Assembly (NCBI RefSeq): GCF_000559085.1 | Contig: NZ_JALN02000001.1 | Coordinates: 1,612,001-1,676,000, forward strand | Reading direction: 5' to 3' | DNA length: 64,000 bases | DNA from: Mycolicibacterium aromaticivorans JS19b1 = JCM 16368 | GTDB taxonomy: Bacteria; Actinomycetota; Actinomycetes; Mycobacteriales; Mycobacteriaceae | Position numbers and translations under genes: made by a program | The notes under the pieces: generated by a model | The model's database searches: none | Told to the model about the DNA's origin: nothing | What the model saw: only the letters and a program-made list of their open reading frames with translations | Part shown: piece by piece, positions 37,525 through 44,955 of the stretch | How positions within the stretch are numbered: position 1 is the first letter of the stretch | Layout: each line of letters starts with the position of its first letter

Positions 37525-38379
37525 CTACAAGTGCTTGGACCGGTTGACGAAACGGCCGGCGCGCGGCGAAAACAGCCATCCACCACCGGCTTTCGTCCCG
37601 CCGTCGACCGGGATGTTGTGACCGGTGACGAAACCTGACAGCTCTGAGGCCAGAAACAGCGCCACCCGCGCCTGATCTTCCGGCCACCCGACCCGACCGA
37701 CCGGCGCCCACGACTGCCACAGGTGCTCGACGTCCTCGTAACCGGTGAGATAGTCCACCTGCGGCGTCTGGGTGAGATCGGTGCCAATGCCGTTGACGCG
37801 GATTCCGTGGCGGCCCAGATCGACCGCCAGACACGTCGTGAAATGTGCGACAGCAGCTTTCATCGCGCCATAGACCGGATCGCGCGGAAAGCCGCGCATG
37901 CCTTCCACCGAGTGGACGTTGACGACGTTGCCGCTGCCCGCCGCGATCATCGCCCCGACGAAGGCACGGGTGACCGCGAAGACATGGCGCAGGTTGACGT
38001 CGTACATCCGTTGCCAGGTCTGGGGTGTCGACTCCTCGAAGCCCACCAGCGGCCGGTAGTCACCGACGTTGTTGACCACGACGTCCACCCGCCCGTGTGT
38101 GCCCAGCACCGCATCGGCAAGACGGGTGACATCGTCGTCGATGGTCACGTCCACGACGTGACTGCGGATCACCCCGCCGACCGCCGTCACCTCGCGGCTG
38201 ATGCGTTCGGCGCGGACCGGGTCGATCTCGGCGACCTCGACGACGGCGCCGTGTGCGGCGAACAGCGCCGAAATCGCTCCGCCGATACCGTCGCCGCCGC
38301 CCGTCACGACCGCAACGCGGCCCTCCAGCAAGCGATTCCAGTCCGCGATATCCGCGATTCCATGCGGGCCGTTGCTCAT
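37525..38379 (-). CDS. Short-chain dehydrogenase/reductase
   Basis: 284 residues of the classical SDR family: cofactor loop VVTGGGDGIGG, NNVG (usually NNAG), catalytic Ser in VNVHSVEG and YGAMK (YxxxK), then ITDLTQTPQ-like substrate loop and a C-terminal GHNIPVDGG. Acidic residue EID after the second strand favours NAD over NADP. It lies 19 bp downstream of the FAD oxidoreductase in the same direction, so it is probably the last gene of the type III polyketide synthase operon, where it could reduce or oxidise a ring or side-chain carbonyl; that role is inference. Confidence 0.87.
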   Translation of the reverse strand: MSNGPHGIADIADWNRLLEGRVAVVTGGGDGIGGAISALFAAHGAVVEVAEIDPVRAERISREVTAVGGVIRSHVVDVTIDDDVTRLADAVLGTHGRVDVVVNNVGDYRPLVGFEESTPQTWQRMYDVNLRHVFAVTRAFVGAMIAAGSGNVVNVHSVEGMRGFPRDPVYGAMKAAVAHFTTCLAVDLGRHGIRVNGIGTDLTQTPQVDYLTGYEDVEHLWQSWAPVGRVGWPEDQARVALFLASELSGFVTGHNIPVDGGTKAGGGWLFSPRAGRFVNRSKHL

Positions 38380-38398
38380 AGCGGCGCAGCCTACGCCG

Positions 38399-39415
38399 TC
38401 AGTAGGCCAGCAGGTTCACAATCTTGCCGAACGCGCTCGGCAGCGCTGCCGCCGCAGGCACCACCGCGGAGCGGGTGGGACCGAACTCGACGGCCTGCAG
38501 CAGGCCCGCCGTCAGCAGCCGGTAGCGCCGCGACATCCGCCGCCATTGCCGGTCGTAGTTGCCCGGCCGTTCCGCCAGAACACAATTCACCAACAGCTCG
38601 GCGCCGCCGAAGGCGATGCCGAGCCCTTCACCGGTCAACGCGTCGACGTAGCCTGCGGCGTCGCCCACCAGAAGGACACGGCCTGCTCGGCGCCCGGCCA
38701 CCCGCTGCCGCAGCGGACCCGCTGCCCGCTCTGGGCCGTGCGAACATCCGTTGACCCGCTCGCGCAGCGCACCGAATTCGGCCAGCCTGCTCTCGAACGA
38801 ACCCTGCTGCGCGGTCAGGATCGCAATGCCCACACAGTCGTCGGCCACCGGCGTGACGTAGGCCTCGGCGCCGTCACCCCAGTACACCTCGACACGGTCA
38901 CTCCACGGTGCGATGCGCACGTGCCGCCGCAGGCCCCACCGCCGTGACCCGCCGCTGGGGCGAGAAAGGCCCAGCGACCGCCGGATCGGCGAATGCAAGC
39001 CGTCGGCGGCGGCGAGGTAGCGAGCACGAAAAGGCCCGCACTGCACCGATTCCGCGTCCTGGGTGATCGAGCCGATGCGAGCGTCCACCACGTCGACACC
39101 TGCGGCCTGCACCGCATCTGTCAACGCGGTGTGCAGAGCGGTTCGGCGCACTCCCATACCCGGACCGGAGCGAAACGGGGCATCCACCCGCCGCGCGGCA
39201 TCGAAATAGGTGATGCCCCGAAACGGCTTGCCGGGCAGAACTATTCCGAGTTTGTCGAGCTGACCCACGGCGTAGGGCATCATTCCCTCGCCGCAGGCCT
39301 TGTCGATCGGTGCGCGGCGGCGTTCGACGACGGTGACTTTCAGCCCGGCCCGGGCGGCATGCAATGCGGTGACCAGACCGGCCGGGCCGCCGCCTGCCAC
39401 CAGGAGATCGATCAC
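38399..39415 (-). CDS. FAD-dependent hydroxylase/oxidoreductase of the polyketide operon
   Basis: 338 residues of the geranylgeranyl-reductase/PHBH-like flavoprotein family: FAD motif LLVAGGGPAGLVTALHAARAGLKVTVVERR, ACGEGMMPYAV, and RVLLVGDAAGYVDALTGEGLGIAF. The GTG at 39415 overlaps the upstream methyltransferase stop by 4 bp. Gene order type III PKS, ICMT-like methyltransferase, flavoprotein is the same set as SrsA-SrsB-SrsC of Streptomyces griseus phenolic lipid synthesis, in which the flavoprotein hydroxylates the resorcinol ring to a quinone precursor. The function here is inferred from that parallel. Confidence 0.82.
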   Translation of the reverse strand: MIDLLVAGGGPAGLVTALHAARAGLKVTVVERRRAPIDKACGEGMMPYAVGQLDKLGIVLPGKPFRGITYFDAARRVDAPFRSGPGMGVRRTALHTALTDAVQAAGVDVVDARIGSITQDAESVQCGPFRARYLAAADGLHSPIRRSLGLSRPSGGSRRWGLRRHVRIAPWSDRVEVYWGDGAEAYVTPVADDCVGIAILTAQQGSFESRLAEFGALRERVNGCSHGPERAAGPLRQRVAGRRAGRVLLVGDAAGYVDALTGEGLGIAFGGAELLVNCVLAERPGNYDRQWRRMSRRYRLLTAGLLQAVEFGPTRSAVVPAAAALPSAFGKIVNLLAY

Positions 39416-43309: not shown

Positions 43310-44146
43310 TCAGCCCTGCCTTCTGCTGATACGAACACGACCAGCAGGAGGTTCACAACGCCTCCCCGAACGGCCTCGCAACCTACCGGGCCACGGTAAC
43401 CAATAGGGCACTCCCCGCGCATAGTTGTCGAACTCGGCACCGAACACGCGACGGAAGCGGGCCTCTTTGAACAGCGGCCCTACCAGGCAGTATGTGGTGA
43501 ACACCACGGCGAGAACCAACTGATCGGGAGTCCAGGTCGGCACCGTCCAGACCGTGAGCGCGAACGCGACGTAGATCGGCTGCCGGGTGAGCCGGAACAG
43601 ACCGGTCGTCGGCATCTTCGGGAAGACCGGCTTGCGGTCGCGCAGAAGGGCGACCCAGCCGAGGCTGCCGGTCTGCAGTGACAGGCCGGCGTCGAACATC
43701 GACTTCCCCAGCAGGACCCAGGCGACCGCATAGAGCGCGACGACGGCGGTCAGCGCCGCGCCCTGCGCCTGCCACCAGATCGTTCCGCTGGGCGTCCACA
43801 ACGCGAACAGCGCGATCAGCTGAAGCGAGCCCGCGATGACATAGGTCGTCGGCGCAAGGGTGGCGCCGGTGCCGCGCGGCGCCAGCTTGGCCAGGAGGGC
43901 CCGGCCCCGGCCGGTGAGCAGCATGGAGTGGATGAGCGGGAACTGAAGGAGAAGCGCCGCGTTGGCGACCCAACTCCACGGGGCAGCCACCCTGCCGAAC
44001 GAGCGGCTCATCCCGAAGTACATTGCGACGACCATCGAACCGACGGCCAGGACGAACAGCGCATGACAAACGATGCCGTAGCTCACGGCCAGGACTGCCC
44101 GGCCGCCGCCTTTCCGGGCGACGGCTGACGACACTATTGCCCGCAC
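43310..44146 (-). CDS. NnrU/ICMT-like polytopic methyltransferase
   Basis: 278 residues with about six hydrophobic helices and the C-terminal signature FRLTRQPIYVAFALTVWTVPTWTPD...LFKEARFRRVFGAEFDNYARGVPYWLP, as in the isoprenylcysteine/methanethiol methyltransferase group. It is distinct from the shorter ICMT-like gene downstream. GTG 44146 follows GAGAGG at 6 nt. As the first gene of the minus-strand operon it may perform a second methylation or act on a small thiol or phenol; the substrate is unknown. Confidence 0.75.
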   Translation of the reverse strand: MRAIVSSAVARKGGGRAVLAVSYGIVCHALFVLAVGSMVVAMYFGMSRSFGRVAAPWSWVANAALLLQFPLIHSMLLTGRGRALLAKLAPRGTGATLAPTTYVIAGSLQLIALFALWTPSGTIWWQAQGAALTAVVALYAVAWVLLGKSMFDAGLSLQTGSLGWVALLRDRKPVFPKMPTTGLFRLTRQPIYVAFALTVWTVPTWTPDQLVLAVVFTTYCLVGPLFKEARFRRVFGAEFDNYARGVPYWLPWPGRLRGRSGRRCEPPAGRVRISRRQG

Positions 44147-44202
44147 ACACACCTCTCGCAAGCCCGTCACTGGCACCCGCGAGCACAACGTAGCGTGAGT
44201 CC

Positions 44203-44955
44203 ATGAATCTTCGCCAGCATTTGCCGTTGCTGCGATGGTCGGTGCTGCGCACCGGCATCGGGATCCGGAACTTCAACAGGACGGGCCAGATCGGCGACGG
44301 CCGGGAGGCCGCGGCGGCCGACTACGTCGAGGCCAACGCCCGTCGCGGCGATATCGACAGCGTGCTGGCCACCATCGACGAGTACGCCTACGCCAAGTCA
44401 TTTCTGGTCAACATCGGCGACGAAAAGGGCGCGCTACTCGATGCCGCGGTGCGCCGCGCCGATCCAGGACTAGCGCTCGAATTGGGCACCTACTGCGGGT
44501 ATGGCGCGTTGCGGATCGCGCGGGCAGCGCCGTCGGCGCGGGTGTACTCGGTCGAGCTCGCATCGGCGAATGCCGCAGTGGCCCGGCGGATCTGGGCGCA
44601 CGCGGGTGTGGCGGACCGCGTCACCTGCGTGGTCGGGACAGTCGGCGATGGCGGGCGCACGCTCGACGCGCTGCATGACGAGCACGGATTCGACTCAGGC
44701 ACAGTCGATTTCCTGTTCATCGACCACGACAAGAACGCTTACCTGTCGGACTTGCTCAGCATCGTCGAGCGGGGCTGGCTACGCAGCGGGGCCGTCGTCG
44801 TCGCCGACAATGTCGGCTTCCCCGGCTCCCCGAAGTACCGTGCCTTCATGCACGACCACGAGGGCGACGGCTGGACTACGGTAGAACACCGCACTCACAT
44901 GGAGTACCAGAAACTGGTGCCCGACCTGGTGCTCGAGTCGCAGTATCGCCGCTGA
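44203..44955 (+). CDS. Catechol-type O-methyltransferase
   Basis: 250 residues with the COMT layout: KSFLVNIGDEKG, SAM motif ALELGTYCGYGALRIA, YSVELA, metal/catechol Asp in DFLFIDHDKNAYLSDL and the DNVGFPG Asp-Asn pair. Enzymes of this kind methylate catechols using Mg2+ and SAM. It is divergent from the type III PKS operon, with 56 bp between start codons, so a shared promoter region is likely. A catechol or quinol intermediate produced by that operon would be a sensible substrate. Resembles the Rv1703c family. Confidence 0.85.
   Translation: MNLRQHLPLLRWSVLRTGIGIRNFNRTGQIGDGREAAAADYVEANARRGDIDSVLATIDEYAYAKSFLVNIGDEKGALLDAAVRRADPGLALELGTYCGYGALRIARAAPSARVYSVELASANAAVARRIWAHAGVADRVTCVVGTVGDGGRTLDALHDEHGFDSGTVDFLFIDHDKNAYLSDLLSIVERGWLRSGAVVVADNVGFPGSPKYRAFMHDHEGDGWTTVEHRTHMEYQKLVPDLVLESQYRR

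What the first reader, a model, noticed from the sequence alone, without database searches (positions are those of the whole stretch)
37525..44955. Type III PKS operon likely making an exported phenolic lipid or polyketide quinone
Six minus-strand genes (NnrU/ICMT-like, MMPL exporter, type III PKS, ICMT-like methyltransferase, FAD hydroxylase, SDR) have gaps of 16, 10, -1, -4 and 19 bp. The PKS-ICMT-flavoprotein set equals the Streptomyces srsABC set, and polyketide quinones from such clusters have been reported as alternative electron carriers in M. smegmatis. New here are a dedicated MMPL exporter, a second ICMT-like methyltransferase and a divergent catechol O-methyltransferase, which suggest a more heavily methylated and exported product.
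Basis: partly seen in the sequence, partly recalled or inferred. Interest (0 to 1): 0.75.

Follow-up and report, generated by a model that had tools for sequence, protein, structure and literature searches.

The report
Mycobacterial quinone-lipid operon with own exporter
A mycobacterial gene set that probably makes a ring-bearing membrane lipid of the polyketide-quinone kind carries a lipid exporter gene in the same operon; the pairing recurs in related species and suggests that the lipid is moved out of the inner membrane.

Summary
The six minus-strand genes, their five gaps and the divergent gene are all there. PKS, ICMT-type methyltransferase and flavoprotein form a pkq/srs-type core: the PKS is nearest to M. 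tuberculosis Pks11 among solved proteins, keeps Cys-His-Asn and the Trp linked to resorcinol formation, and belongs to the class of the only PKS match in a close M. smegmatis relative. The real finding is the transporter. In 53 Mycobacterium genomes, 15 of 48 class-A PKS genes (15 of 22 once pathogen-type pairs are set apart) have an MMPL gene 0-92 bp upstream; about 0.1 is expected by random placement. All 15 fall in one MMPL clade of 17. Related MMPLs sit at a conserved locus that I read, from recalled synteny, as mmpL13 (substrate unknown to me); 14 of 47 class-B PKS genes lie within 10 kb of a family member. In another genus a different MMPL (33% identity) joins the same core. Best reading: a methylated alkyl-resorcinol/quinone lipid moved across the inner membrane by a dedicated MMPL. 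COMT and the NnrU-like membrane enzyme occur together in 30 of the 32 loci (of 80) holding either; whether the latter is a methyltransferase is open. No product was measured.

The parts
39921..41045 (-). Class-A type III PKS (start ATG 41045; GTG 41054 and ATG 40988 also possible)
   Evidence: Pfam Chal_sti_synt N and C; Pks11 550.8 bits; Cys, His, Asn and Trp present
39412..39921 (-). ICMT-family membrane methyltransferase, overlaps the PKS by 1 base
   Evidence: Pfam ICMT 94.2 bits, cut-off 24
38399..39415 (-). FAD-binding oxidoreductase or hydroxylase, overlaps the ICMT-type gene by 4 bases
   Evidence: Pfam FAD_binding_3 61.8 bits; GG-reductase superfamily 113.3 bits under cut-off; 24 PDB sequences at 1e-3, best 41.5 bits
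37525..38379 (-). SDR-family oxidoreductase, last gene of the operon
   Evidence: Pfam adh_short_C2 186.2 bits; at 70% identity or more in 17 of 80 loci
41056..43293 (-). MMPL (RND-type) transporter of the PKS-linked clade, start TTG 43293
   Evidence: Pfam MMPL 276.3 bits; MmpL3 is the closest solved protein, 316 bits; clade of 17; Asp-Tyr motifs IDY and DYEVF
43310..44146 (-). NnrU/MddA-like integral membrane protein, possible methyltransferase (start uncertain, 44134-44188)
   Evidence: MddA 80.3 bits, cut-off 270; 26-sequence alignment; model with mean pLDDT 77.2
44203..44955 (+). COMT-like O-methyltransferase, divergent from the operon
   Evidence: Pfam Methyltransf_3 56.9 bits; catechol O-methyltransferase 144.6 bits
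44147..44202 (.). Intergenic stretch between the COMT and NnrU-like starts, likely shared promoter region (inference)
   Evidence: head-to-head in 26 of 26 pairs that the gene caller found adjacent, gaps 44-182 bp

Best explanation
The operon makes a long-chain alkyl-resorcinol by a class-A type III PKS (shown: family, catalytic residues, Trp marker; inferred: product). The ICMT-family enzyme methylates a ring hydroxyl and the flavoprotein oxidises the ring, giving a methoxy-hydroquinone/quinone lipid as in srs/pkq (inferred from the same gene set and order). The divergent COMT-like enzyme methylates one hydroxyl of a vicinal pair (inferred). The MMPL protein, encoded directly before the PKS, takes the lipid out of the inner membrane towards the periplasm or outer membrane by proton-driven transport (inferred from repeated linkage, one clade and conserved Asp-Tyr motifs). 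The SDR is an optional tailoring enzyme (inferred). The NnrU-like enzyme modifies the lipid in the membrane, by methyl transfer or perhaps reduction (open).
For: Gene set and gaps. PKS residues and tree. Linkage: 15 of 48 class A and 3 of 47 class B PKS genes within 1 kb of an MMPL, expected 0.10 and 0.09. All 15 class-A-adjacent MMPLs in one clade of 17, SH-aLRT 97; a second tree gives a 48-row operon clade, SH-aLRT 95. A different MMPL (33% identity) stands behind PKS-ICMT-FAD in another genus (L132). One MMPL stands between a class-A and a class-B PKS set in L110. Asp-Tyr motifs: strict IDY-type motif in 99 of 100, strict DYEVF motif in 89 of 100, variants in 10 more, neither in one long-branch row.
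Against: 23 of 68 PKS+ICMT+FAD loci lack the MMPL nearby, 16 of them with 5 kb or more held upstream. 7 of 22 unpaired class-A PKS genes lack it, among them the one of the M. smegmatis relative G077. 67 of 100 family MMPLs are not within 25 kb of a PKS match; G065 and G079 have a 67-68% MMPL and no PKS match at 1e-30. A respiratory quinone should stay in the inner membrane. The linkage counts ignore shared descent. No chemistry was measured.
Confidence: 0.6

Rival explanations
1. An ordinary respiratory polyketide-quinone operon: the lipid stays in the inner membrane as an electron carrier, and the MMPL only places it between leaflets or is a bystander kept by operon inertia.
For: Papers give a respiratory role to the M. 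smegmatis and Streptomyces quinones (passages); the M. smegmatis relative G077 has the core without an adjacent MMPL; 23 of 68 core loci lack it.
Against: A bystander would not be expected as one clade at the same spot in 15 genomes, with varied flanking genes, nor as an unrelated MMPL beside the same core in another genus.
Confidence: 0.25
2. The MMPL exports a common envelope lipid (as MmpL3 does) and shares the operon only for co-regulation.
For: MmpL3 is the closest solved protein (316 bits), and family members occur in 113 of 118 genus genomes at 1e-100, 67 of 100 without a PKS match within 25 kb.
Against: 379.8 bits against a cut-off of 1400 for the MmpL3 equivalog; the PKS-linked members form their own clade.
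Confidence: 0.12
3. For the NnrU-like gene: it is a membrane reductase of the steroid 5-alpha-reductase/ICMT superfamily fold, not a methyltransferase, so the product is reduced rather than further methylated.
For: Best fold matches are PbSRD5A (E 3.8e-3) and SRD5A2 (1.7e-2), ahead of ICMT (6.5e-2); Gln stands where an R-H-P motif (recalled) has His, in 26 of 26 aligned relatives.
Against: Best named family is the methyltransferase MddA (80.3 bits), and the weak Pfam hit is PEMT (16.6 bits, under cut-off 25); all fold matches are weak (none at 1e-3) and two fold groups rank together.
Confidence: 0.3

Closest known systems
pkqABC of Mycobacterium smegmatis (MSMEG_0808 cluster)
   Same: Type III PKS, methyltransferase and oxidoreductase in this order (PMC9927152, PMC8730385, passages); class-A PKS in the nearest held genome, G077
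   Different: The G077 operon has no MMPL beside it but two M28-peptidase-family genes (Pfam run on one of the two); the M. smegmatis sequence itself was not compared
srsABC of Streptomyces griseus
   Same: PKS, methyltransferase, hydroxylase set as described in papers (passages)
   Different: Sequence not compared; the passages name no MMPL, COMT or NnrU-like gene
Pks10/Pks11-type pairs of pathogenic mycobacteria
   Same: Closest solved PKS is Pks11; in the PKS tree Pks11 lies inside a clade with MMPL-linked PKSs
   Different: None of the 26 paired class-A PKS genes is within 10 kb of a family MMPL; the fetched loci of that type show no ICMT or FAD gene
MmpL13 and other cluster II MmpL transporters
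   Same: MMPL family, Asp-Tyr motifs, closest solved protein MmpL3; related clade at a locus that I read as mmpL13
   Different: In the PKS operon, not at that locus; no large C-terminal domain
MMAR_2193 O-methyltransferase cluster of M. marinum
   Same: An O-methyltransferase gene in a type III PKS cluster (PMC8730385, passages)
   Different: PKS there is the pks18 orthologue (PMC5916927); sequences not compared

Membership tests
pkq/srs-type polyketide-quinone operon | Type III PKS with Cys-His-Asn | tested here: met
   Cys163, His302, Asn335 of the called PKS; kept in 66 (one gap), 67 and 67 of 67 rows
pkq/srs-type polyketide-quinone operon | Trp associated with resorcinol formation | tested here: met
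   Trp255 by motif position in the alignment; 62 of 67 rows W; role taken from passages
pkq/srs-type polyketide-quinone operon | Methyltransferase and flavoprotein genes directly downstream | tested here: met
   overlaps of 1 and 4 bases; families
pkq/srs-type polyketide-quinone operon | Alkyl quinone/hydroquinone product | not testable with these tools
   needs expression and LC-HRMS
cluster II MmpL transporters | MMPL domains and Asp-Tyr proton-relay motifs | tested here: met
   relay role from PMC10171966 passage
cluster II MmpL transporters | Large cytoplasmic C-terminal domain | tested here: not met
   MmpL3 alignment runs to residue 753 of 761 in the query, so only a short tail is left; feature
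cluster II MmpL transporters | No periplasmic docking/coiled-coil domain | tested here: inconclusive
   aligns end to end with MmpL3 and only in parts with MmpL4/MmpL5; domain not looked for directly
MmpL13 orthologue | Place at the conserved locus (CoA-transferase III, SDR, MMPL, TetR, methyltransferase) | tested here: not met
   window MMPL is in the PKS operon and in a separate clade; naming of the locus is recalled
catechol O-methyltransferase | Full-length similarity to COMT | tested here: met
   144.6 bits over residues 28-242 of 250; metal-ligand motifs judged by eye from recall
MddA methanethiol S-methyltransferase (NnrU-like gene) | NCBIfam MddA score over the cut-off | tested here: not met
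   80.3 bits, cut-off 270
ICMT-fold methyltransferases (NnrU-like gene) | Fold match to ICMT | tested here: inconclusive
   no match at 1e-3; steroid 5-alpha-reductases and ICMT fill ranks 1-3, TM-scores 0.20-0.31

The most novel reading that the evidence does not exclude
A branch of MmpL transporters, the operon clade found here together with its relatives at the mmpL13-like locus, evolved to export type III polyketide phenolic or quinone lipids. Mycobacterial polyketide quinones then come in two modes: retained (respiration; M. smegmatis-like operons without an adjacent transporter) and exported (envelope lipid or extracellular redox shuttle; MMPL-linked operons, some with extra modification), and the orphan MmpL13 gains a candidate substrate class.
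Probability: 0.35. Interest if true: 0.75.

Novelty: new variant of a known kind. Interest (0 to 1): 0.52.

Why it matters
It turns a one-genome guess into a testable rule: one MMPL clade travels with type III PKS operons. If export holds, polyketide quinones are not only inner-membrane electron carriers, and MmpL13, for which the review passages that I read name no substrate, gains a candidate. The first tests need only laboratory or environmental mycobacteria.

Tried and rejected
Rejected: pks18-type pyrone synthase (1ted 128.1 bits against 550.8 for Pks11). Rejected: the MMPL as an MmpL3 (379.8 bits, cut-off 1400) or as a member at the mmpL13-like locus. Rejected: the set as peculiar to this genome. 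No Rfam match at gathering score in 36000-46500.

Led nowhere: no genome of the 395 searched matched the MmpL3 fragment taken for M. smegmatis at 100% (best 98%, G077), and none of the 395 matched Pks11 at 100% (best 89%), so the mmpL13 name rests on recalled synteny. Anand 2015 (PMC6051517) is not held (found through a reference list), so I cannot say whether it shows an MMPL gene. Paper searches for an MMPL with a type III PKS: one search found no paper with all four terms; one search listed one paper with all three terms (PMC10619280), which I did not open; one search listed 10 of 39 papers holding at least three of four terms. PMC5916927 calls the mmar_4313 cluster orthologous to the M. 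smegmatis one; by elimination mmar_4313 looks to me like class B, which would make that orthology loose, but I could not test it.

Limits: the 80 loci are the best 80 of 303. The 53 genomes were chosen by me out of the 118, for fewer contigs in the main, yet some are drafts (G001 220 contigs, G023 110). In one search, of 110 MMPL places 7 under 45% identity, two broken copies (G045, G009) and one short copy (G011) were left out. The MMPL trees used the quick method without bootstrap, and the branching order between the operon clade and the clades at the mmpL13-like locus is unresolved. In one search the Pks11 row was put by my naming pattern into the MMPL group; no group statistic of that call is used. 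In one search rounded genome sizes were used. In one search a 53-residue match at a contig edge (G041) is not among the 15 strong matches.
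Full report
What is there. The window lies in a 6.3 Mb genome of the genus searched here as Mycobacterium. Six minus-strand genes and a divergent seventh were confirmed with the stated gaps. SDR, FAD-binding enzyme, ICMT-family methyltransferase, type III PKS and MMPL transporter are over Pfam cut-offs; the NnrU-like gene has no Pfam hit at 1e-3 and a sub-cut-off MddA hit; the divergent gene is an O-methyltransferase, closest in the PDB to catechol O-methyltransferase (144.6 bits).

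The PKS. Pks11 of M. tuberculosis is by far the closest solved protein (550.8 bits; the next kind, CylI, 192.2; pks18 128.1). The catalytic Cys, His and Asn and the Trp that papers link to resorcinol formation (PMC9927152 and PMC5916927, passages) are present; Trp is kept in 62 of 67 aligned PKSs. In 53 genomes I sort PKS matches by identity to the window: class A (63-100%), class B (47-58%, some of them fragments) and class C (27-33%). The own genome has one A and one B; the B copy has an ICMT-type gene beside it but no FAD match in the 19 kb read. G077, the genome nearest to M. smegmatis by an MmpL3 fragment (98%), has one PKS match at 1e-30, of class A, followed by ICMT and FAD genes; M. 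smegmatis is reported to have a sole type III PKS gene, pkqA (PMC9927152, passages). That makes class A the pkqA class, by inference. In the PKS tree the G077-type sequences and the class-A PKS of L110 are sister to the rest of class A, and Pks11 with five pathogen-type PKSs lies inside a 29-row clade otherwise made of operon-type PKSs.

The neighbourhood in relatives. Of 80 fetched loci (the best 80 of 303), 68 have PKS+ICMT+FAD; 45 of these 68 also have the MMPL, 23 do not, 16 of them with at least 5 kb held upstream. COMT and NnrU-like gene occur together in 30 loci, the NnrU-like gene alone in 2; the SDR in 17. In one group of loci the order is COMT-NnrU-MMPL-PKS, in another MMPL-COMT-NnrU-PKS. 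The head-to-head COMT/NnrU pair is constant in the 26 pairs that the gene caller found adjacent (gaps 44-182 bp). In 118 genus genomes, 15 have a strong NnrU-like match (63% identity or more); in 14 of the 15 it is beside the MMPL or the PKS (coordinates; L137, L138). The exception, G044, has the COMT-NnrU pair without a PKS or MMPL match in the 16.7 kb read (L136).

Linkage test. I located PKS and MMPL matches in 53 of the 118 genomes. Of 103 PKS places, 15 of 48 class A, 3 of 47 class B and 0 of 8 class C are within 1 kb of an MMPL; random placement expects 0.10, 0.09 and 0.02. Within 10 kb: 15, 14 and 0, with 0.45, 0.41 and 0.09 expected. These counts take no account of shared descent, so they show that the link exists, not how often it arose. 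26 class-A genes are pairs within 25 kb of each other (the pathogen-type arrangement of PMC5916927), none within 10 kb of an MMPL; of the other 22, 15 have it 0-92 bp upstream on the same strand. The seven without it are in G001 (two, on separate contigs), G055, G020, G077, G049 and G087.

MMPL phylogeny. A tree of 100 MMPLs from these genomes, taken without regard to PKS, puts all 15 PKS-A-adjacent ones into one clade of 17 (SH-aLRT 97); the other two are unlinked copies in G087 and G055, whose class-A PKS lies elsewhere. A tree from the named and fetched loci (75 rows) agrees: 48 rows, all but one of them labelled as operon MMPLs of the kinds described and the last (L082) two genes from its PKS, form one clade (95). 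Related clades hold MMPLs at a conserved locus with a CoA-transferase III gene, an SDR gene, the MMPL, a TetR gene and a methyltransferase gene; the branching order among these clades is unresolved. I take this for the mmpL13 locus; that naming is recalled synteny. PMC6463170 (passages) counts mmpL13 among the conserved core, says that it is split in M. tuberculosis H37Rv, and names no substrate in the passages seen. Class-B PKS operons lie near this locus in several genomes (L091, L118, L119, L120) or face the MMPL directly (L090, L096). In L110 one MMPL stands between a class-A and a class-B set.

Outside the genus. In a draw of 251 genomes of the family, four from other genera carry a PKS at 1e-60. 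One of the four (L132) has PKS-ICMT-FAD-MMPL on one strand, the MMPL only 33% identical to the window's but over the Pfam cut-off: a separate joining of a transporter of this superfamily to the same core. L134 and L135 show no MMPL match in 19 kb, and L133 is a 6.6 kb contig without one.

How it works. Best-supported: the PKS makes an alkyl-resorcinol, the ICMT-type and flavin enzymes make it a methoxy-hydroquinone/quinone lipid, COMT adds methylation, and the MMPL moves it out of the inner membrane. Shown here: families, residues, gene order, linkage, clade. Inferred: product, direction of transport, roles of COMT and of the NnrU-like enzyme. The last is the weakest part: Gln stands in place of the His of an R-H-P motif (motif recalled) in 26 of 26 relatives, and the predicted fold (mean pLDDT 77.2) matches steroid 5-alpha-reductases slightly better than ICMT, all weakly.

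Against it. The transporter is absent from the neighbourhood in part of the group, including the M. smegmatis relative; 67 of 100 MMPLs of the wider family have no PKS match within 25 kb, and G065 and G079 have such an MMPL but no PKS match at 1e-30. The MMPL lacks the large C-terminal domain that reviews give to cluster II. An electron carrier should stay in the membrane; so the reported respiratory role and export may belong to different branches, or the transporter may only place the lipid in the outer leaflet.

Verdict. It is a new variant of a known operon type; its value lies in the MMPL-PKS rule and in what it suggests for MmpL13.

Noticed in passing
window 35463-36509 (-) and 34640-35461 (-): A cyclic-nucleotide-binding/GNAT protein and a shikimate-dehydrogenase-like protein follow the operon in most L003-L017 loci, and the first of them also in many of the COMT-NnrU type loci.
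   Followed up: partly
window 44974-46152 (-): A histidine-phosphatase-family protein lies tail-to-tail with the COMT gene; the gene caller's cluster has it in 19 loci, in L018, L029 and L039 directly before the MMPL.
   Followed up: partly
L109 9703-12632 (G077): Two genes of one family stand directly before the PKS in place of the MMPL; one was scanned and is an M28 peptidase with a PA domain. A like pair is seen in L115-L117.
   Followed up: partly
L110 7401-14064 (G014): One MMPL between a class-A FAD-ICMT-PKS set and a class-B ICMT-PKS set, all on one strand.
   Followed up: partly
L089 and L100: An MMPL divergent from ICMT+FAD (L089) or FAD alone (L100) where close relatives (L090, L096) have the PKS first; the PKS seems lost there.
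   Followed up: no
L025 and L029: Contigs titled Bifidobacterium breve MAG carry the mycobacterial operon, so those bins are probably mislabelled or contaminated.
   Followed up: no
window about 456-932 (+): A second, distant COMT-like match (36% identity, E 4.0e-14) near the left edge of the window.
   Followed up: no
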